IMG/VR virus record: IMGVR_UViG_3300046513_000348
Span: 62,001 to 126,000 of that record
Source of the DNA: a virus
Length of the DNA: 64,000 nucleotides
Strand: one strand, 5' to 3'
How positions within the stretch are numbered: position 1 is the stretch's first letter; every line of letters begins with the position of its first letter. Under the pieces are notes generated by a model. That model saw nothing but the letters and a program-made list of their open reading frames with translations. It was not told where the DNA came from and did not search any database. Of this stretch, positions 2,588-64,000 are shown one piece after another. A program made the position numbers and the translations under genes.

Positions 2588-2965
2588 TTAGTAGGATGTT
2601 TCGAACTTCTTCACCACAATAGATCTGTTTTTACGGTTGTGCTCAGGACGATATTCGAAACCGTCCTCTGCGTAAATGCCATGACCGCGAAGGATATCGG
2701 CAATAAAGCGCAAGAGTACAAAAAAAGATTCCACGAACAACTTGTAGAATCTTGGATCGGGCTCGAGTTCATCACGATAGAAATTCCCCAGGCGTGACAG
2801 CTGGGGTTCATCGCGACAATCTTCGAGCTCGTAAATGAGGACGTCGAAAACTTGGTTAACGACTTCCTCTAAAACGTATTCAGGAATGCGACTGACCTTG
2901 TGCGAGAGGGCATGCGAGAAATTTCGCAGCGGCTCACGCAGGTCGATAATTACCCGCTCAGACAT
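2588..2965 (-). CDS. Hypothetical protein, 125 aa, small-protein cluster member
   Basis: Not recognised. Mostly helical, acidic in the middle, ending in a basic strand-like tail (SIVVKKFETSY). Overlaps the end of its upstream neighbour by 16 nt, so translation is probably coupled. The general design, helices followed by Gly and a terminal beta strand, is shared with the next four genes and suggests diverged paralogues. Confidence 0.75.
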   Translation of the reverse strand: MSERVIIDLREPLRNFSHALSHKVSRIPEYVLEEVVNQVFDVLIYELEDCRDEPQLSRLGNFYRDELEPDPRFYKLFVESFFVLLRFIADILRGHGIYAEDGFEYRPEHNRKNRSIVVKKFETSY

Positions 2966-7262: not shown

Positions 7263-8075
7263 ATGCATGCTGGTGGTGCAGTTGAGAAGGCTCTGAGTGA
7301 AATCAAATACCAGATTCCGGAAGAGATCTTGGATTTGGTCTTCATTAAGAAAGCCTATACCTACCGCGACAGGCCTACCAACCTGGATCGCGAAATCATC
7401 AAAAAGGTTATCGGTCCCCGTGTCATGGTGGACTGCAACCTGTTGGGTGGCGTGGACTACATTGTCCCGCTGCTTGACATCTATCGCGAAACCACTGAAG
7501 AGTGGATGGCGATTTACCGGATCCCGAAAGAGTTCACGGACAATCGAAGCATCATGTCGATCCTCGGTATCATGTACATCAACCCTTACATGGTCTCGGC
7601 TCCTGCCGGTCAGAACGTACAAGGCTGGTCGCATGTGATGGCAACTTCCCAGGCCGTCCTGGATGCGATGTCGCCTATCCCGAACTTCACTTCTTCGGAA
7701 GTATCGCTGGAAGGTGAGAACACGATCCTCGTTCGCGATGCCCGTGTACTGCCGCAGTTCAGCTATGCTCGATGCATTCTGTCGTACGACGAGTACATGA
7801 GCAACATCAATCCTCGCTCGTATATAGCTTTCTCGAAGATGTGCGTACTTGCAGTCAAGTCGTTCATCTGGAAGAACCGCGTCATTCCAATGGACAAAGG
7901 CGAAATGACCGCTGGCGTTACGCTGGGTGCGATCAAGGAAGTCATCGACGAATACCGCGATGCGGAAGAACAATACCAGGACTATCGCATGAACACGATG
8001 CGTAAAGTTCTGATGATGAATGACGATGTGCAGAAGCGTCGTCTCATTACCCGCATCGTTGGCGGCTACCGATAG
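7263..8075 (+). CDS. Conserved-type phage protein, probable virion component, 270 aa
   Basis: Not recognised to family. No signal peptide or clear membrane span; mixed alpha/beta composition with many Tyr and Ile, ending in a charged helix rich in Arg, Met and Glu (about residues 218-260). AGAGGA precedes the ATG. It is a single-gene plus-strand unit ended by a strong stem-loop shared with the converging LamG gene. A structural or connector role is guessed from size and composition only. Confidence 0.75.
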   Translation: MHAGGAVEKALSEIKYQIPEEILDLVFIKKAYTYRDRPTNLDREIIKKVIGPRVMVDCNLLGGVDYIVPLLDIYRETTEEWMAIYRIPKEFTDNRSIMSILGIMYINPYMVSAPAGQNVQGWSHVMATSQAVLDAMSPIPNFTSSEVSLEGENTILVRDARVLPQFSYARCILSYDEYMSNINPRSYIAFSKMCVLAVKSFIWKNRVIPMDKGEMTAGVTLGAIKEVIDEYRDAEEQYQDYRMNTMRKVLMMNDDVQKRRLITRIVGGYR

Positions 8076-8085
8076 CAAACAAAAG

Positions 8086-8115
8086 TATACTCCAGGCCGC
8101 AAGGCCTGGAGTATA
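8086..8115. terminator. Bidirectional terminator between converging genes
   Basis: Stem TATACTCCAGGCC / GGCCTGGAGTATA, 13 bp, GCAA loop. The minus-strand reading is followed by CTTTTGTTT. It separates the 270-aa plus gene from the LamG minus gene. Confidence 0.8.
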
Positions 8116-8126
8116 TGCCGCATGCT

Positions 8127-11014: not shown

Positions 11015-12334
11015 TTATTCAGGCAATGGCATGCGGGAGATGTGACGAGAATGTACGTCGGCCAGGAAAGCGATCGGATTATCCGGGTTTTCCTTGAATG
11101 CGTTTTCCACCTCGCAGCCAGGCAGGCGGATTGTATTCTTCGACAGCAAAGACATGCAGCGAATATGATGCTCTTCGGAAATGTTGTCATACATCTGTTC
11201 GATGTATTCGAAGATTTCCACCGAGGTCAATTCGTCGATGAGGTATTCGTTGTCGATACGCGACTTGCGACGAACGGCGGGATCCAGATCTTCAGGATGA
11301 TTGGTAGTCATGATGATGATCAAGTTGTCCAGACCAACCACGCCGTCGAACGCATTCAGCAAGCCCGACATGGTAAGACCGCCGCCAGTCAAAGCTTCTG
11401 CCGCAATGGATGCCGCATCTTTCTCTTTGTCTTGCTTACGTTTACGAACTGCGCTGCCTGCCTGGTCCACATCTTCCAGCAAGAGGAACGAACCTGGGCG
11501 AATGTTTGCCAGAGCAGCCATCAGCGTTTCGTTGGTCATGGCGGACAGATCCATGACGTAGATGTCCCGGCGGAAATGCATTGCCAGCAAACGCGACAGC
11601 GTAGTCTTGCCAGTACCAGGCGGCCCGTAGAAAAGGAAAGAAGATTTGTAGGTCAAACCTTTGCGACGGTACCAGTCACGATTCTCGATGAAGTGCTGGA
11701 TCTTCCCAATGATGTCGTTCTTCTGCTCACGGTTCATGCAGAACGTCGAAATGTCCCGCGGAGCTACCTGGCAGATTTCCTTCCAGCCATCGCGACCACC
11801 CACACCGTGCACACTGATCGTGTCAGTCTTGGCCTTCTTCGAATTGAACAGGTTAGTCAGGCGTTCGAATACCGTGTTGTTCAAACCGAAGGTACGAATC
11901 GTGATCTCTTCCTTCTCACGTTCAGCGCCAGACGAATCGAGCTTGCGTTTCGTGAACCAGAACAGACGACGTTCGTAGAAGAAGAAGTGATAGCCGAAAC
12001 CAATGCCCAGGCGATAAGGCGAATAGTTCTCTTCAGCAAACAGATCTTCGCGCCATTGACGGAACATAAAGAAGTTGCGACTGAACCGTTTGTAGCCCGA
12101 CTGCATGAACCACTTGTCGAACAAAGTGTATGCATCGATGTTACCATCGTAACCTGCATTGTTCAGGCTCATCGTCACGGTCGTGAAGCGAATGAACGCA
12201 TCCCAGATACGAGATGGCAGATTCTTCAGATAGAACATCAAACCACCGATCAGTGGGATTGCGATCGTTGCGACCAGTGGGTTAGCTCTGGTGATTTCGT
12301 TGTAGTGGCTGATGATCGAAGTGATCCAGTCCAT
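11015..12334 (-). CDS. Membrane-anchored Bcs1-like AAA+ ATPase, 439 aa
   Basis: AAA+ ATPase of the Bcs1 type. One N-terminal membrane segment (about residues 19-36, NPLVATIAIPLIGGLMFYL) is followed by a ~190-residue Bcs1-N-like region. The AAA core has Walker A GPPGTGKT (237-244), Walker B FLLLEDVD (283-290), sensor 1 IMTTNHPEDL (341-350) and an arginine-finger cluster DPAVRRKSRID (351-361). A charged insertion RKRKQDKEKD (about 297-306) sits after Walker B. The start has AGGAG. Bcs1 proteins translocate or remodel folded proteins at membranes; the phage role is unknown. Single-gene unit with its own terminator. Confidence 0.87.
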   Translation of the reverse strand: MDWITSIISHYNEITRANPLVATIAIPLIGGLMFYLKNLPSRIWDAFIRFTTVTMSLNNAGYDGNIDAYTLFDKWFMQSGYKRFSRNFFMFRQWREDLFAEENYSPYRLGIGFGYHFFFYERRLFWFTKRKLDSSGAEREKEEITIRTFGLNNTVFERLTNLFNSKKAKTDTISVHGVGGRDGWKEICQVAPRDISTFCMNREQKNDIIGKIQHFIENRDWYRRKGLTYKSSFLFYGPPGTGKTTLSRLLAMHFRRDIYVMDLSAMTNETLMAALANIRPGSFLLLEDVDQAGSAVRKRKQDKEKDAASIAAEALTGGGLTMSGLLNAFDGVVGLDNLIIIMTTNHPEDLDPAVRRKSRIDNEYLIDELTSVEIFEYIEQMYDNISEEHHIRCMSLLSKNTIRLPGCEVENAFKENPDNPIAFLADVHSRHISRMPLPE

Positions 12335-12419: not shown

Positions 12420-13010
12420 TCAACGGAGTTTCGATAGATCAAGGTAAAACGACATTGCACGGTAGGGTTTCGGGAAGTACAACTTCGCCTTACCCAGATA
12501 GTGGCCAGGACTATCGTTGCCAATCAGACGGGAGAATACGGCGACCTCGATGATTGCCGAAGTGTCGTTCAGTTCAGCACGGCTGATCGTTCCCTTGAAA
12601 ACGTAGAGATGTAACCGCTCTGCGACTTTCGAAGCATTGAGGTTTCCAACATCTTCCTTAGCCAGGTTTTCGTAATTGATGCAGTCCAGTGCCATCGGCG
12701 CATGCCAGCCCGGAGTCGTCTTGGCGAAGTAAAACACGATCTCGCGATCTTCCGCCAGGGAAAAACTCATGCCAGGGACCCATCTTTTCGGCTCATGACC
12801 CACGATGTTCGTCAGACGTCCTAACGGGGGATTGTACAGGTCGTATTCGTTTACAGGCGCTACAAGCTCTTTTTGTTGTTCTGAGCTGCGCTGTTGTGTC
12901 CGAGGTGTCCGGAGCGCTGCCACGAGGCTCTGAGGACTTGCCAGGGGCATTCCTGCCTCCTCATCACGCTCCCCGCTCGCTGCGCGCTTGCGATCTACGA
13001 AAGTTTTCAT
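12420..13010 (-). CDS. Hypothetical protein, 196 aa
   Basis: Not recognised. A basic, probably disordered N-terminal ~50 residues (DRKRAASGERDEEAG and a Gln-rich TQQRSSEQQKE) precede a compact beta-rich domain with many Tyr, Phe and Trp. No membrane span. Start is an ATG with a short AT-rich leader. It is the first minus-strand gene left of the 400-nt non-coding divide at 13011-13406. Confidence 0.7.
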   Translation of the reverse strand: MKTFVDRKRAASGERDEEAGMPLASPQSLVAALRTPRTQQRSSEQQKELVAPVNEYDLYNPPLGRLTNIVGHEPKRWVPGMSFSLAEDREIVFYFAKTTPGWHAPMALDCINYENLAKEDVGNLNASKVAERLHLYVFKGTISRAELNDTSAIIEVAVFSRLIGNDSPGHYLGKAKLYFPKPYRAMSFYLDLSKLR

Positions 13011-13064
13011 TTTTTTACTCCATGACTTTTATTCAAAAGATCAAAAGTCAAATAGGATAAAACA

Positions 13065-13090
13065 CCAAGACCACCTTTCGGCGGCCTTGG
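13065..13090 (-). terminator. GNRA-capped stem-loop terminator in the non-coding divide
   Basis: On the minus strand CCAAGGCCGCC-GAAA-GGTGGTCTTGG, 11 pairs including G-T pairs, capped by GAAA and followed by TGTTTTATCC. No well-supported protein gene lies upstream on that strand before the divergent plus-strand gene, so it may end a small RNA. Confidence 0.6.
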
Positions 13091-13216
13091 GTTTCGGGAT
13101 TGGGGATTATCAAGCATGTTGTATCCCTCTGTACGAGAGGGATACTAACTTCTTTTTTACACAAAGCGAGTAGCTTTGTCATTTCTTTGTTTTTGAAAAA
13201 AAGACTTCTTTCTTAT
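13065..13216 (-). ncRNA. Candidate small structured RNA
   Basis: A minus-strand transcript started in the AT-rich DNA around 13220-13260 would fold into the 10-bp stem GTATCCCTCT/AGAGGGATAC (13121-13145) and then the terminator above. A 44-codon ORF (13182-13048) runs through both stems but has no ribosome-binding site. Boundaries are guesses; I do not recognise an RNA family. Confidence 0.3.
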
Positions 13217-13217
13217 T

Positions 13218-13243
13218 AATATAAATACGTTAGTATTTATATT
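13218..13243. repeat. Perfect AT-rich inverted repeat in the divergent intergenic region
   Basis: AATATAAATAC-GTTA-GTATTTATATT, 11-bp arms and a 4-nt spacer, with TATAAT-like sequences just to its right. The surrounding 13011-13406 holds no convincing gene. Likely an operator, promoter pair or replication-related site. Confidence 0.6.
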
Positions 13244-13307: not shown

Positions 13308-13323
13308 AACACCGTAGACGGTG
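13308..13323. repeat. Short inverted repeat upstream of the 215-aa gene
   Basis: ACACCGT-AG-ACGGTGT, perfect 7-bp arms, 84 nt before the ATG at 13407. Could be an operator or a leader hairpin. Confidence 0.4.
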
Positions 13324-13406
13324 TCGAGTTTCTTTCGCGGTAAAATTTTCGGAAAACGCAGATCTTCTGACCTTGAATCCACCATACTTTTCGAGAGGAC
13401 ATACAG

Positions 13407-14054
13407 ATGGGTTTGGTAGCCACCATGCGCGACGTGCAAACCAGCACGAAGCCCGAAGAACTGAATCGATACAATCCGGAACGGCCGATCATGGTCGATG
13501 GCAGTCTGAGCGAACTCGTGACTCACGCTCTGAACATCGCCTATTCCAAACGCAGCATGACTACGGGTGATCCGTTTTACGGCAATCCCAATCCGACTGG
13601 CAATCCTGCGCCAGGTGCTGGCTTCGTGCCGAACATTCAAGCACCGGATGCGAACCGTACCGAAAAGGTCGTTCGTCCGACGCTCGAAGGCATGCAGATG
13701 CACCAGGAAGAAGCCGAGCACGTTGCCGCTGCTCTGTCCACGGTGCTGAACGCCAAGGACAAAGATGCGACTTCGTATCTGGCCCAGGAACCACTGGTCG
13801 TGTACGCCCTGCCAGCCGACGGCATGGTGAGCGAAGAAATGAATGCCGACATCGACATGTATGCTGAAAGCGGCGCGGTCGACATCGGTGATTTCGTCTT
13901 CGTCTTCTCCGACAACAACGATCCGACGATCGCTCAAGACTATCGTCCGGTCGACCTGAACCAGCGCGTCAAGGATTACGAAGGCAAAGGAGCCCGGGTC
14001 TACAAAGACCTGCAGTCGTTCCTGATTGCGCTGCCAGATTTGCGTCGTAAGTAA
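13407..14054 (+). CDS. Hypothetical protein, 215 aa
   Basis: Not recognised. The ATG has AGAGGA upstream. A Gly/Pro/Asn-rich linker (YGNPNPTGNPAPGAGFVPN, about residues 58-76) separates an N-terminal segment from an acidic domain. No membrane span. First gene of a four-gene plus-strand operon that ends at 16310, with 6 nt to the next gene. Role unknown; could be a virion or early protein. Confidence 0.75.
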   Translation: MGLVATMRDVQTSTKPEELNRYNPERPIMVDGSLSELVTHALNIAYSKRSMTTGDPFYGNPNPTGNPAPGAGFVPNIQAPDANRTEKVVRPTLEGMQMHQEEAEHVAAALSTVLNAKDKDATSYLAQEPLVVYALPADGMVSEEMNADIDMYAESGAVDIGDFVFVFSDNNDPTIAQDYRPVDLNQRVKDYEGKGARVYKDLQSFLIALPDLRRK

Positions 14055-16363: not shown

Positions 16364-18547
16364 TTAGTAAACCGTACCGCCCGAATCGGTAACCCGACGA
16401 TAGACACCGGCAAAGATGTCCCTGTCGTTTGGCCGGTTGGCATTGATGCGTTTGTTTTCCCTGGACTTTTTGATGAGGTCCGAGACACTAAACGTTTCGC
16501 CTTCCTCTTCCACGATTTGGGAAGCCAGATTCTTCATCTCCGATTCGAGACGCATGATGACGAAGTGGTCTTTTGCATTTGCCAGCTGATCGGCGACTGC
16601 TTTCAGATCTTCGCGAAGTTGTTGTTGTTTGCGATCGAACGCGCTCATCTCCGTGTACGACTTCTTGACGAGCGTCGAACTCATGAGGTTAGTTGCATCC
16701 AAACCGTAGTACTGCAGATTACGACCGAACTTAGCCAGCCACATCGGAAGCAGCCAAGCCACCACGCCGTCGTCATGTCCACCTTTCGGGTGATCCACAC
16801 GACCGTTAATGACTTCCAGCGCCAGCAGCTGGTCGATGGTCTTGACGTCGTTGATTCGATCCATGGCATGGCGCACAGCTTCTTGCAGAACCTGGCCGTA
16901 GAGCAAGGAACGAGCATTGTCGCCGGTTGCACTCGTCTTGAAGCCGAATGCCGTTTTGTATTGGTTGTACAGATCGCCGTAGGTGTACTTGGTCGCTCCT
17001 CGGATTTCATCCATGACGTCCTTGTACTTCTCCATGTCCTGCACGATGCTGTTGTACAGTCGCTTGAAAGCGTTCTGACCATTCAGTCGGAACAGCAGGA
17101 GTAGCTGATCGATCAGGGATACACCAGTCGACTTACGTTCGATTACGGCGATGAGTTTAGGCCAGCGCTGCAGCTGATCAAAGAACCACTGGCCAAATTC
17201 GATCAGGTTGGACATCTGGACAAAGCAGGTGCCGATTGTTTCGAGAGTTGTCAGGTCGACATATTGCAATGCGATCTCGTCTTTACCACCGGCTTCGGAG
17301 GTATCGACACCGACTGCAATGTTGCCTTCTTCCATGAGGGCATCGCGGGTCTTCAGGCTGACGTACCATTTCGTCATGTAGCGCATCTTCGGGTCGATCT
17401 CCGCCACGAAGTCTTCACGCTGGTTTGCACGAATGGTGTCAAGTTGGTCTGCGGTAAGAGGGGATCCGCGGCCGCCAGAAGTCCAGACGTTGAAGTAATC
17501 TCGGTCGGCCTCTTCGCCGCTAATCATTGCCTTCTTGATGTTGTCGTAGTGCTGGGCATCGGAGATACCGAGCATGCGATGGCTGAACGTGCAGTTGATC
17601 GCAAAGCCGTTCGCACTGCCTGCCAACACCATCTTCTTCAGGTCATCGTGATCCTTGCAATCAAAGATCAGATCCGTGAATGGGAAGGAGTCGGTCAGAA
17701 TCTGGTAAGCATACTTACCGTCGCGATCGTCTTTCTTGCCCGCGGTAGTCGCCAGCACAATGCCATGGTGGGCATTGTTTTCTTTTGCACTAACGAATGC
17801 CGCGTTGGTTGTCGACAGAATGGTAGTCAGGGTTGCTTTGAGCCAGGAGATGTAAGCAAATTCGTCAATGCGGATGTTTGCAGACGTAAAGCCTCGACCA
17901 ACTTTATAAGCACCCTTCTCGTCGCCTCGTGGGACGTGGGTTTCATACTTGTTGTCAACTGCCGACAAGTAGATGTATTCTTGGTTGCTCGGATCTTTCT
18001 TCGGAGTGGACCTTCGCAGGTACATCGGAAGAACTTCCTCATACTCCTTGAGACGAGCAATGTCGTTTCGACGCAGCTGGTCTTCTTTTGTCAGGAGGTG
18101 GATACTGGAGTGAACCAGACCGAAGTTCAACAGGTATCGGTCAAGCGCCGAAATGTTCACTGACTTGCCAGTCTGACGTGGCTGAATCAGGAAGGTGGTA
18201 ACGTGATTGAAGTAGCACCACCAGAGTGCACAGTTACCGCGGTTCGCTTTCACAACACTCGGTTTCATCGAGCCCTGAACTGGGATCCTGGCAATCTCGC
18301 GGAAGAAGTACCATGGGTTCTCGAAGCACTCCTTGGTGATCAGAGCTTTCATTTCGAGAGACAGGTTGTTCTCATCGAAAGGATCAACTCCCACCAGGTC
18401 CTCGTTATGTAAGGCCAGAGGCCAGAGGTTGTTCTTTACCCCCATATCCTCAAGGATATAACAGATGTCGACAAAGGACTTGTTGGGGGTGTCTATGTCG
18501 ATAATGGCATGCGGATATCGCTTCCAGTCTTGCTCGAACAGAATCAT
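16364..18547 (-). CDS. terL: Terminase large subunit (DNA packaging ATPase/nuclease)
   Basis: Packaging motor, 727 residues, positioned like phiKZ gp25. ATPase domain: Walker A IQPRQTGKS (121-129), Walker B IRIDEF (225-230), coupling motif ATTAG (266-270). Nuclease domain of RNase H fold: GVDTSEAGG (D415), AVIERKSTG (E470) and a late GGHDDGVVAW with acidic residues. N-terminal ~100 residues and a C-terminal charged helical tail (~620-727) extend the core. No intron seen. Start is the ATG at 18547, preceded by a TATG element just downstream of a terminator. Acts at the portal during head filling. Confidence 0.93.
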   Translation of the reverse strand: MILFEQDWKRYPHAIIDIDTPNKSFVDICYILEDMGVKNNLWPLALHNEDLVGVDPFDENNLSLEMKALITKECFENPWYFFREIARIPVQGSMKPSVVKANRGNCALWWCYFNHVTTFLIQPRQTGKSVNISALDRYLLNFGLVHSSIHLLTKEDQLRRNDIARLKEYEEVLPMYLRRSTPKKDPSNQEYIYLSAVDNKYETHVPRGDEKGAYKVGRGFTSANIRIDEFAYISWLKATLTTILSTTNAAFVSAKENNAHHGIVLATTAGKKDDRDGKYAYQILTDSFPFTDLIFDCKDHDDLKKMVLAGSANGFAINCTFSHRMLGISDAQHYDNIKKAMISGEEADRDYFNVWTSGGRGSPLTADQLDTIRANQREDFVAEIDPKMRYMTKWYVSLKTRDALMEEGNIAVGVDTSEAGGKDEIALQYVDLTTLETIGTCFVQMSNLIEFGQWFFDQLQRWPKLIAVIERKSTGVSLIDQLLLLFRLNGQNAFKRLYNSIVQDMEKYKDVMDEIRGATKYTYGDLYNQYKTAFGFKTSATGDNARSLLYGQVLQEAVRHAMDRINDVKTIDQLLALEVINGRVDHPKGGHDDGVVAWLLPMWLAKFGRNLQYYGLDATNLMSSTLVKKSYTEMSAFDRKQQQLREDLKAVADQLANAKDHFVIMRLESEMKNLASQIVEEEGETFSVSDLIKKSRENKRINANRPNDRDIFAGVYRRVTDSGGTVY

Positions 18548-27897: not shown

Positions 27898-27962
27898 GTT
27901 GTTCTCCTTGAAAAGGTTTTGGCCAAAAAAGATTTTGATTGCGTTTCGTAAATCCGAGAGAG

Positions 27963-27975
27963 CATAACACCCATA
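27963..27975 (-). promoter_or_regulatory. Two TATG elements upstream of the 287-aa gene
   Basis: Minus-strand TATGGGTGTTATGC, directly after a terminator stem and ~66-78 nt before the start at 27897. Candidate late promoter. Confidence 0.33.
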
Positions 27976-28004
27976 ATTGCTACTGGCCGAAGCCAGTAGC
28001 AATT
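27975..28004 (-). terminator. Terminator after the 166-aa gene
   Basis: Perfect 13-bp stem AATTGCTACTGGC / GCCAGTAGCAATT with a CGAA loop. There is no T-tract on the minus strand; the right edge runs straight into a TATG element. Confidence 0.65.
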
Positions 28005-28020
28005 ACAGATGGGTTTCGTC

Positions 28021-28521
28021 TTACGACGAGAAGGCGGTGCTGTAGCCCTCGGACAGGAAGCCGCGAACTGCTTTCAGTTCGCCCTTCGAGTTCTGGGTGC
28101 CGCGAACCTTGTACTTCACGGTCGCATCGCCCCACAGGTCGCGCTCGCCGTCGACCTTGAAGGCGCCGCTTTCCTTGTCCAGGACACGGTTCGGCACGCG
28201 CTGGTGTTTCTCGAACGAGACTTCCATGCGGTTGCGGCCGATTTCGAAGACGCCCGACACCGTCGAGACGTCCTTGTTGTTGCGCTTGTGCTCGAGGGCG
28301 ATCTCGCCTTGTGCCAGGGTATTGGCGGCGATGAAGTCCGAACGGTATTCGTCGTCGCGTTCCATCTGGTCGACGTCGCGGCCGTCTTCGGTTGCGATCT
28401 TGCGGAACAGGCCGTCGTCCTTCAGGGTGTTGTTGCTGTCGACGCCGGTGCCTTGCACTGCCTTGATGCGATCGGCCAGGGTGCGGGTTTTCGGGCTGAC
28501 GTTGAATTCTTTATCGCTCAT
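28021..28521 (-). CDS. Hypothetical protein, 166 aa
   Basis: Not recognised. Highly charged and probably flexible N-terminal third (DKEFNVSPKTRTLADRIKA), then a beta-rich C-terminal half. No membrane span. Codons are strongly C/G-ending like sheath and tube, suggesting an abundant late protein such as a head or scaffold component. Lies 58 nt downstream of the 161-aa gene on the same strand. Confidence 0.72.
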   Translation of the reverse strand: MSDKEFNVSPKTRTLADRIKAVQGTGVDSNNTLKDDGLFRKIATEDGRDVDQMERDDEYRSDFIAANTLAQGEIALEHKRNNKDVSTVSGVFEIGRNRMEVSFEKHQRVPNRVLDKESGAFKVDGERDLWGDATVKYKVRGTQNSKGELKAVRGFLSEGYSTAFSS

Positions 28522-60047: not shown

Positions 60048-60685
60048 TGGCGAACGAACTCTTGCCATCGATTGGCATGTCGGGGCAATGGAAACTCAAA
60101 GCCCCGTTTGACACCAAGATCGTTGCGAACCTCACCTACACTTGTAAAGAAGTCCGCAAGCTGGGTGCGATGATTGCAGCGGGTGTCGATGCCTTCGAAG
60201 AATTCTACGTTCCAAACGAAATCACTCGTGACGTGTACGACCAACACGTCGCTAGCGATATCTCGGTCATCACTCTGTCCTCTTCGTCTGGCAACTGGAT
60301 TAATGTCCCGACGCCTTACCTGGATGGCTGGCCCAATGCTAACGTAATCCCTTACGTTGTCGTTGGTCTGATCGCTGATATCGGTGCATTACCCAACACG
60401 ATTGATCCGACATTCCTTGCCGAGAAGGTGAAGAACACGATCATGAGTTCCCTGGGTCATGAACCCCAGATCACTTTCGTTGCTCTGTCGGAAGTCACCA
60501 ACATGCCTTTCGATGAGCACGAAGCTCTGGAGAATCTCCGTATGTCGAACATCGAGGACGACAACACGGATTACTCCCGCCGTATCAAAGCCGAAGCTGA
60601 CCTGGCAAAAGCGCGCGCAGAAATTGCCGCACTCCAGCAGTTCATCATCGACTCGGGTGTACCAATTCCAGTTGTGACCGGATAA
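60047..60685 (+). CDS. Probable virion protein, 212 aa
   Basis: Not recognised. Starts at the TAATG overlap with the 433-aa gene, so translation is coupled. Beta-rich first two thirds, then a C-terminal coiled-coil-like helix (IKAEADLAKARAEIAALQQF). Such a helix often mediates trimer or partner assembly. Ends in a strong terminator. Confidence 0.75.
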   Translation: MANELLPSIGMSGQWKLKAPFDTKIVANLTYTCKEVRKLGAMIAAGVDAFEEFYVPNEITRDVYDQHVASDISVITLSSSSGNWINVPTPYLDGWPNANVIPYVVVGLIADIGALPNTIDPTFLAEKVKNTIMSSLGHEPQITFVALSEVTNMPFDEHEALENLRMSNIEDDNTDYSRRIKAEADLAKARAEIAALQQFIIDSGVPIPVVTG

Positions 60686-60697
60686 ACAAAAGACATA

Positions 60698-60725
60698 CCT
60701 ATCCTGCCCTCGCGGGCAGGATAGG
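60698..60725. terminator. Terminator between converging genes
   Basis: 12-bp stem CCTATCCTGCCC / GGGCAGGATAGG, TCGC loop. Confidence 0.8.
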
Positions 60726-60736
60726 ATTATGTTCGT

Positions 60737-61465
60737 TTAGTACAGAGTCGAGATTGGAGTAAAGTCAGAAACAGCCAAGCACTTGTTATACAAGCGAATT
60801 CGATCCATATTACCGTTGATGCCAGAATAGCCAGGGCCGCCATTTCGAGCATCGTAATAATTACCGATGTACAGGTTCGAACCGAAGCCGATTGCCGAGT
60901 TATAAATCTCAGTCGATGTTCCAACAAGCTTACCTCCCAAGAAGAGGTAGACCTTGCCGTCCTTACGGCCAACGGCATGATGCTGCCATAAACCATTCGC
61001 AGCACGCATGGTTGCCTTGACGAGTGTCCTGGACGAAGTGCCGCCGTCAGTAACGTTCAAGATCGGATAGAGATCCGACAGGCCCCAGAAACTCATACCG
61101 CCTGCGGCAGTAAAGGCACCGTAAGAAAGGAAGACGTTATTGCCGCCGGTGAATGTATAGTTGCCCTGACCGTTGCAGAACGCCCAGGTTTCGAACCAGA
61201 AGTCCCCAGGGAAATTCAGTTCGGCGGATCGTGGCGTATACAGACTACCACAAGCTGACGAAGGCTGTTGCGACTGAAGGAAGCTCTGCGTACCGTTGAT
61301 TTTTCGTGCAGTCGACAAACTAACGTCAGCAGCCTGGATCGTTCCGTAGGTACGTGCCGTATTAACGGAGTCCTTCCAGGAGGCTCCTTCAAAGTCCATC
61401 GCCAGGACAGCTCCGCTGTCGCCGTACGAAAAGCCCTTCTTTTTCAAAAGGTTAGATTCAAGCAT
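60737..61465 (-). CDS. Second LamG/concanavalin-like domain protein, 242 aa
   Basis: Beta-sandwich binding protein. Features: VLAMDFEGASWKDSV near the start, FPGDFWFETWAFCNG strand pair, QHHAVGRKDGKVYLFLGG (the W/H-H-x-A-V-x-R strand typical of LamG) and NMDRIRLYNKCLAVSDF at the end, matching the terminal strand of the other LamG protein. The ATG at 61465 is chosen because AAGGAG lies 9 nt upstream; the longer frame includes this ribosome-binding site as coding. Probably a virion surface or receptor-binding protein. It contains four Cys, so disulfides are possible. Confidence 0.78.
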   Translation of the reverse strand: MLESNLLKKKGFSYGDSGAVLAMDFEGASWKDSVNTARTYGTIQAADVSLSTARKINGTQSFLQSQQPSSACGSLYTPRSAELNFPGDFWFETWAFCNGQGNYTFTGGNNVFLSYGAFTAAGGMSFWGLSDLYPILNVTDGGTSSRTLVKATMRAANGLWQHHAVGRKDGKVYLFLGGKLVGTSTEIYNSAIGFGSNLYIGNYYDARNGGPGYSGINGNMDRIRLYNKCLAVSDFTPISTLY

Positions 61466-61510
61466 AGAGTATTGCTCCTTAGATTTCATAGGATTTCGCG
61501 TAAATACGGA

Positions 61511-61514
61511 CATA
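61511..61514 (-). promoter_or_regulatory. TATG element, candidate late promoter of the second LamG gene
   Basis: Minus-strand TATGTCCGTATTTACG, just after the terminator stem of the SbcC-like gene and 46 nt before the LamG start. Confidence 0.38.
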
Positions 61515-61515
61515 A

Positions 61516-61541
61516 CCATCCTACCCTTTCGGGTAGGATGG
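61516..61541 (-). terminator. Terminator after the SbcC-like gene
   Basis: Perfect 11-bp stem CCATCCTACCC / GGGTAGGATGG with TTTC loop, 8 nt past the stop codon. Confidence 0.8.
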
Positions 61542-61548
61542 AAACGTG

Positions 61549-64000
61549 TCAGTTTAACGTGACGTGTTCATTGAACACCGTATTCGATGGCAGCATCAGA
61601 TTGTCAGTACTGAGCACGCAGGTTTGTGCCAGACTACTCAATGCGCCGTGGTTCGATTCGTAGTGGGAGACCATGAAGATCTGACCATACGCATCTTCGT
61701 CGATCAGCTTCTTGATGAAGTAAATCGCACGTTCACGGTGCACGTCGTCGAATGCTGCTTCGAACTCGTCAAGGAACAACGGAATATGCCCCAAACCCAG
61801 TTGCCTCAAAGCACAGATCCGAAACGCGAAGTTGAAAATGTCGACGATCGATTCCGATCCCTCGTTCACATCCTTCTTCGGTTTCTCGCCCTTGTTCATC
61901 GCAAACGGGAACTTGTAATCCATATCCGCTTGGCCATCCTCCATGATGAACGGAAGGATTTCCAACGGGTATGACCAGACCGATCCGACCACTCGGTTCA
62001 TACGTGAAACGAAGACGTTTACGAAGCGATGAAGACCTTCCGCAATCGCCCCACTCGTCGGCGATAATGCAATGTGTGCCATCTTCGCCACTCGTTCGTT
62101 CATGATTGCTTCGTCCAGCTGATACTGGATCTCGTCCACGATCTGCTGCTGGCTGGTCAGTTGCGCTAATGCATCTTCCTTCCGTGCCAGTTGAGTTTGA
62201 AGGGAAAGGATCAGTTGCCACAAGGCCTCCTGGAAACGGCTATACACATAGCCCTTGATGTGATCTTGGTGAACGCCATGTGCACTGAGCATCTTTTCGT
62301 GCAGTGCTGCAACACGATTGCTCTGTTGGATCAGGTTCTCGACGTCGGCCAGTTCTTCCGTCAGGCCTTTCAGCTTACGAGTCTGAACGCCCATCTTCTC
62401 TTCGATACCAGACATTTCGGTTTCGATGGATTCGAGAGTATCAGCGTCGAGATTCTTTTTGAGCTCGATCTGTTCTTGCGCAGATTCCAAGATCTTCTTC
62501 TGCTTGGCGATCTCGACTTGATGCTCGATGTCGCTTTGCATAGTGTAAAGCTCGGCTGCCACACTGCCCGGATATTGTATCAGGCGATTGTTCTGCGTGA
62601 TCTCGTTAAAGTAAGCACGAAGGTTCGGAGCGGAACGCATCATGTTGATGACGTTGCGATAGGCGTCAGCATACTCGGTGTATTCCGCCATGTACTTCGA
62701 CTCATCGCTGATCCGCTGGACCAGATTGTCCGAATCTTCCTTCAACTGAGCCAATACCGTTTCGGCTTTCTTGATATCGTCTTCCGACGCTTTCGTGGTC
62801 CAGGAATGCGAGCATTGCGGGCAAGTGATCGAATCTTTCTGGACGTGATCGCGACGATGCTCGATATCGGCATTTAAACGCGATATGCGGGCCTGTAGGG
62901 CCGTGTACTGGCCCGAATGCTGAGTGAGTCGAGCCTGAGCCATCTCGGCCTTCTCGCGCGTATAAACACCGTCGTTGGAAGGCAGGCTAGAAATCTTGTC
63001 GTAGAGCTCGTGATAGATTTCTTTCAGCGTAGCCGCCATCTGGACCGCGTCGAACTCGATCCGGACATTAGGAAGAGCAATGAAGGTCTCTTCATAAGCG
63101 ATGGTTTCCTTAGCCGTGGTTACCTTGGCTTGGAGTTCAGCCAGAGATTCTGTACCGGCCTTCACCAGCATGTCATACTTCTTCTTGACACGGGAGTGCT
63201 CGGTGTACAGGTGCTGCTGCATTTGTTGTGCAGCAGCGATCTCGATCTTGATCACATCACGGCAGTCGAGCAGATCCTGATGGTTATCATGACCCGACGA
63301 AGTAATCAGTTCGGTATTGAGCCGATCGATCTCGTTACCGTAACGATCCAGGTCATGCCAGTTCGATTCCAACACTTGCAATACTTCCGGACCTTTCTTG
63401 GCCTCAGCATTGCGCATGTCGTAGATCTCACCAATCAGGGCCTTGATATCGTAGACTTCGTTGTTCAGGGTCTTGATGACGTTTGCATCTGCCAGCTTGA
63501 TGCGTTCATCCACCAGACGCTTCTGCAAGCGCTTGATTGCGCCCTGTGCGTCACGGTGTGCTTCCTGGAGCTTCTTGTAGATACTCATGGCGTAGGTGAA
63601 GTCGGTATCGGCCAGTCGAACCAGCCAGTAACGACGACGACCAGGACTCATGGTGGTCAGGAGTTCTTTGCCCAATGCCAGAGCACGGATTTCATTGGTG
63701 ATGTGGAAATGCTCTTCGACCAGAGCACGGTACATCTCGATCTTACCGTCACCATTCATCTCCACGCCATCGCACATAAAGCTATGATGAGGCTTCGGCC
63801 CTTCAAATGACGACGACAGTTCGTAGAACTTGCCGTTGTATTGGATGTCGATTTCTTTGCGACCATTGATACCAAAGTCATCTTTATCGGCAGGCAGTGG
63901 CCACATCTCGTTCATGAGGGAGCTCTTACCGCTACCGTTCGTTCCCAGAACCATCTGGAGAATGTACAGCAAATCGGGCGTGTACAGGAAGCGTTTGATT
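61549..64000 (-). CDS. SbcC/Rad50-like DNA repair ATPase (partial, N-terminus beyond right edge)
   Basis: SMC-type ATPase that works with an Mre11/SbcD-like nuclease on DNA ends. The frame is open to the window edge (IKRFLYTPDLLYILQ precedes the motif), so the start lies outside; a TTG at 63972 is only an internal codon. Seen: Walker A LGTNGSGKSS near the N-terminus, long heptad-rich coiled-coil arms, a central zinc-hook motif ITCPQCSHSW (C-x-x-C), then the second arm and C-terminal ABC part with EGSESIVDIFNFAFRI (signature region), IPLFLDEFEAAFDD (Walker B and D-loop) and FMVSHYES (H-loop). About 817 residues are visible. The partner nuclease is probably just beyond the edge. Confidence 0.9.
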   Translation of the reverse strand, partial: IKRFLYTPDLLYILQMVLGTNGSGKSSLMNEMWPLPADKDDFGINGRKEIDIQYNGKFYELSSSFEGPKPHHSFMCDGVEMNGDGKIEMYRALVEEHFHITNEIRALALGKELLTTMSPGRRRYWLVRLADTDFTYAMSIYKKLQEAHRDAQGAIKRLQKRLVDERIKLADANVIKTLNNEVYDIKALIGEIYDMRNAEAKKGPEVLQVLESNWHDLDRYGNEIDRLNTELITSSGHDNHQDLLDCRDVIKIEIAAAQQMQQHLYTEHSRVKKKYDMLVKAGTESLAELQAKVTTAKETIAYEETFIALPNVRIEFDAVQMAATLKEIYHELYDKISSLPSNDGVYTREKAEMAQARLTQHSGQYTALQARISRLNADIEHRRDHVQKDSITCPQCSHSWTTKASEDDIKKAETVLAQLKEDSDNLVQRISDESKYMAEYTEYADAYRNVINMMRSAPNLRAYFNEITQNNRLIQYPGSVAAELYTMQSDIEHQVEIAKQKKILESAQEQIELKKNLDADTLESIETEMSGIEEKMGVQTRKLKGLTEELADVENLIQQSNRVAALHEKMLSAHGVHQDHIKGYVYSRFQEALWQLILSLQTQLARKEDALAQLTSQQQIVDEIQYQLDEAIMNERVAKMAHIALSPTSGAIAEGLHRFVNVFVSRMNRVVGSVWSYPLEILPFIMEDGQADMDYKFPFAMNKGEKPKKDVNEGSESIVDIFNFAFRICALRQLGLGHIPLFLDEFEAAFDDVHRERAIYFIKKLIDEDAYGQIFMVSHYESNHGALSSLAQTCVLSTDNLMLPSNTVFNEHVTLN

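What the first reader, a model, noticed from the sequence alone, without database searches (positions are those of the whole stretch)
13065..13216. Possible small RNA in the 400-nt divide
A GAAA-capped 11-bp terminator with a T-rich tail on the minus strand has no credible protein gene feeding it, and a second 10-bp stem lies 30 nt upstream. Together with the AT-rich promoter-like DNA further upstream this suggests a ~150-nt structured RNA.
Basis: inference. Interest (0 to 1): 0.52.

Follow-up and report, generated by a model that had tools for sequence, protein, structure and literature searches.

The report
Conserved small RNA in jumbo phages
Between two divergent genes of a giant bacteria-infecting virus lies a roughly 150-letter stretch whose folded RNA shape, more than its exact sequence, has been kept in five related viruses, so it very probably makes a functional RNA; what that RNA does is still unknown.

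Summary
The window is part of a 218,660-bp phiKZ-like phage. The same divergent gap occurs in five relatives (Burkholderia phages FLC6, FLC8, SURPRISE13 and two IMG/VR records). All six carry, on the minus strand, a 26-nt dyad, a purine-rich leader, hairpin P1, hairpin P2, a C-rich unpaired linker, and the GNNA-capped terminator-like hairpin P3. P3 pairs in 66 of 66 cells, with two-sided changes at 8 of 11 pairs; its 12 G-U cells would all be unpaired if the plus strand were read. P1 has two-sided changes at 4 of 7 pairs. A structure model built from the five relatives alone finds the window at 52.1 bits (E about 1e-11); the sequence-only model gives 20.3 bits. The RNA is single-copy, has no Rfam match and encodes no conserved protein. 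P2 and the linker are conserved in sequence, P3 only in structure. Best reading: a stand-alone ~150-nt noncoding RNA ended by P3. Rivals: a gp19 leader/attenuator, an array of terminators, or an origin element. A search for phage mRNA targets was negative. No transcript evidence exists here. New family of a known kind; moderate interest.

The parts
13056..13212 (-). predicted noncoding RNA, about 150 nt; the 5' end is a guess (about +-8 nt) from the promoter-like element
   Evidence: covariance model match 13053-13183 (-); dyad and promoter-like element upstream; transcription not shown
13218..13243 (.). perfect dyad AATATAAATAC-GTTA-GTATTTATATT; arms change in concert in relatives; TTTATATT (promoter-like) reads outward on both arms
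13161..13179 (-). hairpin P1 (7 pairs, loop TACTC)
   Evidence: two-sided change at 4 of 7 pairs in 6 phages
   Evidence: sequence conserved among relatives
13091..13120 (-). unpaired linker with AUCCCC (13107-13102), conserved C-rich block
   Evidence: 66 of 66 cells paired, 8 of 11 pairs with two-sided change, G-U pairs legal on this strand only
13055..13064 (-). T-rich tail TGTTTTATCC
12420..13010 (-). downstream gene, 196 aa, homologue of FLC6 gp19 (31-34% identity); no Pfam or PHROG match
13407..14054 (+). divergent gene, 215 aa, homologue of FLC6 gp20 (56%; phrog_29071, unknown function)

Best explanation
A phage-encoded, stand-alone noncoding RNA of about 150 nt on the minus strand. Transcription starts at the AT-rich dyad between the two divergent genes, runs through a purine-rich leader, P1, P2 and a C-rich single-stranded linker, and ends at P3. 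P3 is kept only as a structure (terminator and 3'-end protection). P2 and the linker (CCACAUUCAUCCCC in the relatives, AUCCCC shared with the window) are kept as sequence and are the likely active part, acting in trans on a host RNA or on a protein. SHOWN: conserved structure, its strand (through P3), single copy, no conserved protein, sequence conservation of P2 and linker. INFERRED: transcription, the start site, termination at P3, action in trans. Pairing through the C-rich linker is a guess: it failed against phage mRNAs and was not tried on host mRNAs.
For: Same architecture in 6 of 6 phages of this clade. On the five relatives, covariation score 0.341 against 0.152 +/- 0.034 shuffled (0 of 500) and 0.026-0.081 when helices are slid. 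A model from the five relatives finds the window at 52.1 bits, E 7.6e-12; without structure 20.3 bits, E 4.4e-5. All 12 G-U cells of P3 are legal on the minus strand only. Segment identity among FLC6, SURPRISE13 and the 222,888-bp record: dyad 1.00, P2 0.91, linker 0.82, P3 0.54, P1-P2 spacer 0.48. In 4 of 4 relatives counted, gp19 has its own promoter-like TTTTAMAAT and SD downstream of P3. No conserved ORF on either strand; 1-nt indels break the frames. phiKZ makes ~100 and ~180-nt structured ncRNAs seen by northern blot (PMC8545117, section 12 read).
Against: No transcript data. The P3 tail is weak in the relatives (GGUCUUUC), so termination there may be partial. P1 and P2 have T-rich tails on the plus strand too and, taken alone, do not tell the strand. 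In the window's phage, gp19 starts only 54 nt after P3 and lacks TTTTAMAAT there, so here the RNA could be a leader. Linker-to-phage-mRNA pairing is no better than chance: in 190 genes, 21 of 39 shuffled linkers have a best gene at least as good. The P1 loop is GUGGA in most relatives but UACUC in the window. Only six phages, and FLC6/FLC8 are near-identical here.
Confidence: 0.6

Rival explanations
1. 5' leader of the gp19 gene with an attenuator: the RNA is the first part of the gp19 mRNA, P3 stops most transcription, and something that acts on P1/P2/linker (a protein, a ligand or a trailing ribosome) allows read-through.
For: Same strand, directly upstream; in the window gp19 starts 54 nt after P3 and has no TTTTAMAAT of its own. 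Precedent: ~180-nt 5'-UTR fragment of phiKZ p40 with a second stem-loop that may terminate early (PMC8545117, section 12). P3 tails in relatives are weak.
Against: In 4 of 4 relatives counted, gp19 has its own promoter-like motif and SD beyond P3. gp19 is poorly conserved (31-34% to the window), while the RNA architecture is kept. No alternative (antiterminator) pairing was found; none was searched for systematically.
Confidence: 0.2
2. An array of terminators (insulator) between divergent operons: P1 and P2 stop plus-strand antisense read-through, P3 stops minus-strand read-through; no functional RNA as such.
For: P1 and P2 are followed by T-rich DNA on the plus strand and were called terminator-like there, P3 on the minus strand. 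Covariation alone cannot tell a terminator from an RNA with a function.
Against: P2 and the linker are kept in sequence (0.91 and 0.82) where spacers are at 0.48, which terminators do not need. The plus-strand T-run after P2 is lost in the 222,888-bp record (GTTAAAACTTT). The phage's ordinary hairpins look different (perfect stems of 11 bp or more).
Confidence: 0.12
3. A DNA element, such as a replication origin with unwinding region and dyad, to which the RNA is an accessory (primer or R-loop) or incidental.
For: AT-richest 100 nt of FLC6 (0.82, next 0.74) and of the window's genome (0.81, next 0.76); unique, fully conserved dyad; second largest of 240 gaps in FLC6.
Against: Strand-corrected G+C skew shows no inflection here (112 of 500 shuffles as large; extremes elsewhere). 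Compensatory G-U pairs in P3 show selection on RNA. A dyad also fits an operator.
Confidence: 0.06

Closest known systems
phiKZ 5'-UTR ncRNA of p40 (~180 nt; Grad-seq and northern blot, PMC8545117)
   Same: Structured RNA of similar size in a phiKZ-like phage; stem-loops, the last of which may terminate before a start codon; no small ORF.
   Different: Not at the same place: by locus-tag order p40 lies between p23/p24 (about 71 kb) and p76 (247 kb), while PHIKZ032, homologue of the window's 14061 gene, is at 25 kb. The model finds no convincing match in phiKZ (best E 0.002, a plain hairpin). In the relatives gp19 has its own promoter-like motif.
phiKZ 3'-UTR ncRNA of PHIKZ298 (~100 nt; PMC8545117)
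   Same: Two stem-loops, the last possibly a terminator; phage ncRNA.
   Different: Thought to be cut from an mRNA 3' end; here no gene lies upstream on the strand.
Noncoding RNA misc_4 of jumbo phage phiR1-37 (PMC4848604, passages read)
   Same: Noncoding RNA between two genes of a giant phage, proposed there to act on host mRNA.
   Different: 297 nt; no conservation or structure analysis in the passages read; sequence relation not tested.
Intrinsic (Rho-independent) terminators
   Same: P3: GC-rich stem, GNNA loop, T-rich tail in the window.
   Different: Not at the end of a gene; preceded by two conserved hairpins and a sequence-conserved linker; tail weak in relatives.

Membership tests
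Conserved structured noncoding RNA | compensatory base changes supporting the helices | tested here: met
   8 of 11 (P3), 4 of 7 (P1), 1 of 8 (P2) pairs with two-sided change in 6 phages; 0 of 500 shuffles reach the score in the five relatives
Conserved structured noncoding RNA | no conserved protein-coding frame | tested here: met
   no shared ORF on either strand in 6 phages
Conserved structured noncoding RNA | a transcript exists | not testable with these tools
   no RNA data held
Any Rfam family | score at or above the gathering threshold | tested here: not met
   0 matches to 4227 families in the whole window and in four of the six syntenic loci; sub-threshold hits at most 20.4 bits against a cut-off of 110
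Intrinsic terminator (P3) | GC-rich hairpin followed at once by a T-run | tested here: inconclusive
   window called terminator-like; the scans of L002 and L004 did not call P3, tail GGTCTTTC or GGTCTTGC
Trans-acting antisense sRNA | accessible conserved seed with conserved pairing to target start regions | tested here: inconclusive
   conserved unpaired C-rich linker, but phage targets no better than shuffles (21 of 39); host targets not tested
Trans-acting antisense sRNA | binding of Hfq or ProQ | not testable with these tools
   needs co-purification
5'-leader attenuator | downstream gene lacks its own promoter and is transcribed through the leader | tested here: inconclusive
   4 of 4 relatives counted have a promoter-like motif beyond P3, the window's phage does not; FLC8 not in that count
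Replication origin | G+C skew inflection at the site | tested here: not met
   gene-strand-corrected skew not significant, extremes at 59 and 155 kb of FLC6, the gap being at 13 kb

The most novel reading that the evidence does not exclude
The most AT-rich, dyad-bearing site of a jumbo phage of the nucleus-forming phiKZ group launches a dedicated structural RNA that works in the infection itself, for example as an origin-linked RNA or as a host-directed regulator whose P2 hairpin and C-rich linker engage host translation or a phage RNA-binding protein. It would found a new RNA family of the Chiangmaivirus group, possibly with counterparts in the equivalent large gaps of FLC9 (719 nt) and LucasX (434 nt).
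Probability: 0.15. Interest if true: 0.75.

Novelty: new member of a known kind. Interest (0 to 1): 0.45.

Why it matters
Few noncoding RNAs of phiKZ-like jumbo phages are known, and those reported in phiKZ itself are UTR pieces (PMC8545117). A covarying, single-copy RNA with its own candidate promoter, kept across six phages of a Burkholderia/Ralstonia-infecting group, gives a defined target for knock-down or deletion in cultured phages (FLC6, FLC8, SURPRISE13). The dyad and the TTTTAMAAT motif give a first handle on promoters in a group of which RSL2 and RSF1 are reported not to multiply under rifampicin, unlike their cousins RP12 and RP31 (PMC5468394, abstract).

Tried and rejected
Protein gene: rejected. 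tRNA/tmRNA: none. Known RNA family: none. Positional equivalent in phiKZ: PHIKZ032 has only a 90-nt gap to PHIKZ033, and the model's phiKZ matches that I looked at (2 of 7) are plain CCCUCC hairpins. More relatives: in viral contigs, gp20 homologues only in the two IMG isolates plus a fragment without the gap; none for gp19; none in genome contigs; no contig with the window's P2, and for the relatives' P2 two records, both already held. Among 55 stretches sharing a 17-mer of the dyad plus L063, only the same two isolates carry the RNA (one of them cut by the locus end; L040 at 22 bits and L032 at 15 bits judged chance, the L040 alignment seen). No match in FLC9 or LucasX (the tool warns that an empty answer shows little). 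Phage targets of the linker: negative; gp154 of FLC6 pairs strikingly but its orthologues do not. Origin by G+C skew: negative. A CsrA-type GGA in the P1 loop: present in relatives, absent in the window, dropped (by eye; motif recalled). The full shuffle scan timed out and was replaced by a regression scan. A W-run pattern search gave nothing. A third covariance model with all six was not built.

Names: the records of 222,888 and 223,932 bp are called RSF1like and RSL2like in scripts because I recall those lengths for Ralstonia phages RSF1 and RSL2; no call verified this. S13 is SURPRISE13 (PP856017.1).

Full report
WHAT THE WINDOW IS. The window is bases 62001-126000 of a 218,660-bp virus record, G000. 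Its large terminase (16364-18547, minus) is 75-76% identical to those of Burkholderia jumbo phages FLC6, FLC8 and SURPRISE13 and 37% to that of phiKZ, so this is a phiKZ-like jumbo phage related to the genus Chiangmaivirus (taxonomy lines of FLC6 and FLC8). The finding lies in the 396-nt gap between two divergent genes: a 196-aa protein on the minus strand (start 13010, homologue of FLC6 gp19) and a 215-aa protein on the plus strand (start 13407, homologue of gp20).

THE OBSERVATION. The number of terminator-like sites in the area is not unusual, but the minus strand folds far better than its shuffles (z = -6.3, 0 of 200), and 13001-13150 (-) ranks 2nd of 5108 windows after correction for dinucleotides, against rank 107 for the plus strand.

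RELATIVES. The gap is syntenic in FLC6, FLC8, SURPRISE13 and two IMG/VR records of 222,888 and 223,932 bp. All five, and the window, have the same order on the minus strand: a perfect dyad with GTTA at its centre, a purine-rich stretch, P1, a spacer, P2, a linker holding a C-run, P3. In the window: dyad 13218-13243, P1 13161-13179, P2 13121-13145, linker 13091-13120, P3 13065-13090.

RNA-LEVEL SELECTION. Paired by hand, P3 forms a standard pair in 66 of 66 cells, with two-sided changes at 8 of 11 pairs; P1 in 42 of 42, two-sided at 4 of 7; P2 (the 8 pairs common to all) in 47 of 48, two-sided at 1 of 8. P3 contains 12 G-U cells on the minus strand, all of which would be A-C mismatches if the plus strand were the RNA; P1 has none and P2 one, so the strand rests on P3. 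In the five relatives alone the covariation score is 0.341, against 0.152 +/- 0.034 in shuffles (0 of 500) and at most 0.081 when helices are slid by 1-3 columns. The alignment is small and two sequences (FLC6, FLC8) are almost the same. A covariance model built without the window (R1) finds the window at 13053-13183 (-) with 52.1 bits, E 1.9e-11 in 344 kb. On the same six sources the sequence-only model from the same alignment scores 20.3 bits, E 4.4e-5, against E 7.6e-12 for R1. R1 mis-registers P1 in the window, whose loop is shorter; the P1 pairing given here is by hand.

DISTRIBUTION. Of 13 phage records searched whole with R1, six (the window's phage and the five relatives) hold a match at E 1.2e-11 or better, one such match each. 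The other seven give nothing better than E 0.002, in phiKZ, where the aligned part is a plain CCCUCC hairpin; one relative has a second, partial match at E 0.009 (P3-like only). FLC9 and LucasX: 0 of 2. The dyad core TAAATACGTTAGTATTTA occurs exactly once in each of six genomes, always here; three of them have one further 3-mismatch site. No Rfam family matches.

WHICH PARTS MATTER. Among FLC6, SURPRISE13 and the 222,888-bp record, mean identity is 1.00 for the dyad, 0.91 for P2, 0.84 for P1, 0.82 for the linker (CCACATTCATCCCC is the same in all three), 0.54 for P3, 0.48 for the P1-P2 spacer, 0.73-0.76 for the RNA leader, the gp20 leader and the P3-gp19 stretch, and 0.62 for the gp19 start region. 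So P3 is kept as a shape only, as a terminator would be, whereas P2 and the linker are kept as letters, which an array of terminators would not need. The window shares AUCCCC of the linker.

CODING. The window's minus-strand frames (44 and 36 aa) have no counterpart in the relatives, and the relatives' plus-strand frames are broken against each other by 1-nt indels in P1 and the linker.

PROMOTERS. In FLC6, TTTTAAAAT occurs 18 times on both strands, 10 of them sense within 70 nt upstream of genes, and TTTTACAAT 6 times, 4 of them there; such stretches are 3.7% of the sequence. In four other phages, 4-11 mapped gene starts carry TTTTAMAAT within 35 nt, against 0.24-0.37 expected. I take it as a phage promoter motif (inference). 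It lies before gp19, beyond P3, in 4 of 4 relatives in that count (FLC8 not included), but not in the window's phage. A near match, TTTACAAT or TTTATAAT, lies on both arms of the dyad in the relatives, TTTATATT in the window. A bidirectional start at the dyad is thus the natural source of the RNA, but this is not shown.

AT-RICHNESS. The dyad region is the AT-richest 100 nt of FLC6 (82%, next 74%) and of G000 (81%, next 76%), and the FLC6 gap is the second largest of 240. That invites an origin reading; the one test possible here, strand-corrected G+C skew, did not support it.

MECHANISM. Most likely a stand-alone RNA ended by P3, with P2 and the C-rich linker as active module. A comparative search for phage mRNA start sites pairing with the linker (190 of 241 FLC6 genes, those placed in at least 4 of the 5 phages compared) was negative: 21 of 39 column-shuffled linkers had a best gene at least as good. 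Host RNAs and proteins remain as partners and could not be tested. The leader/attenuator rival has a direct precedent in phiKZ (p40 5' UTR; PMC8545117, section 12 read) and is strongest for the window's own phage.

NOVELTY. Paper searches: 'jumbo phage/small RNA/phiKZ/terminator', 'RSL2/RSF1/Ralstonia/phage', 'Chiangmaivirus/RNA' (4 papers), 'RSL2/RSF1/small RNA' (none), phage sRNA terms, 'jumbo phage/noncoding RNA/structured RNA/covariation'. In the listings and the passages read I saw no report of this RNA; the word searches of the FLC6 and SURPRISE13 papers found no 'promoter', 'terminator' or 'non-coding' in the main text. Papers outside the open library could not be checked. It is a new family of a known kind.

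Noticed in passing
FLC6 genome (L072, L097-L100) and relatives; window minus strand 10900, 10234, 6495, plus strand 5252: TTTTAMAAT is a strand-specific motif about 16-35 nt before start codons, roughly 15- to 30-fold above expectation in five phages; candidate promoter of this phage group.
   Followed up: partly
window 11015-12334 (-): AAA ATPase with a BCS1-type N-terminal domain (Pfam BCS1_N E 2e-11; phrog_7485), found in 150 of 50,697 phage records by tblastn.
   Followed up: no
L149 4466-4899 (LucasX) and L148 4753-5471 (FLC9): The homologue of the 14061 gene lies next to (LucasX) or one gene from (FLC9) a large hairpin-rich intergenic gap in two distant jumbo phages too (434 and 719 nt); LucasX has a long near-perfect dyad with GTAGTACTAC arms there.
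   Followed up: partly
window 13308-13325: Small hairpin in the leader of the plus-strand gene; by eye the relatives have a different but paired sequence at the same place (TGCCT...AGGCA, TACCT...AGGTA).
   Followed up: no
L002 7948-7960 and the same place in L004 and L062: TGTTTCAGAAACA palindrome followed by conserved ATATAAC between P3 and gp19, not seen in the window: possible operator of gp19 (by eye).
   Followed up: no
window 27951-28100 (-), 60601-60750 (-), 61501-61650 (-), 2726-2875 (-), 7976-8125 (+): Other stretches with unusually stable folds in the composition-corrected scan.
   Followed up: no
G000 and FLC6, many sites: Dozens of perfect 11-19-bp hairpins with mostly 4-nt loops, several with CATATAC or CATACAC outer arms: probably the ordinary terminators of this phage group.
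   Followed up: no
window 13007-13117 (-): 36-aa frame with GAGGG 7 nt before its ATG, its stop overlapping the start codon of the 13010 gene; not conserved in relatives.
   Followed up: yes
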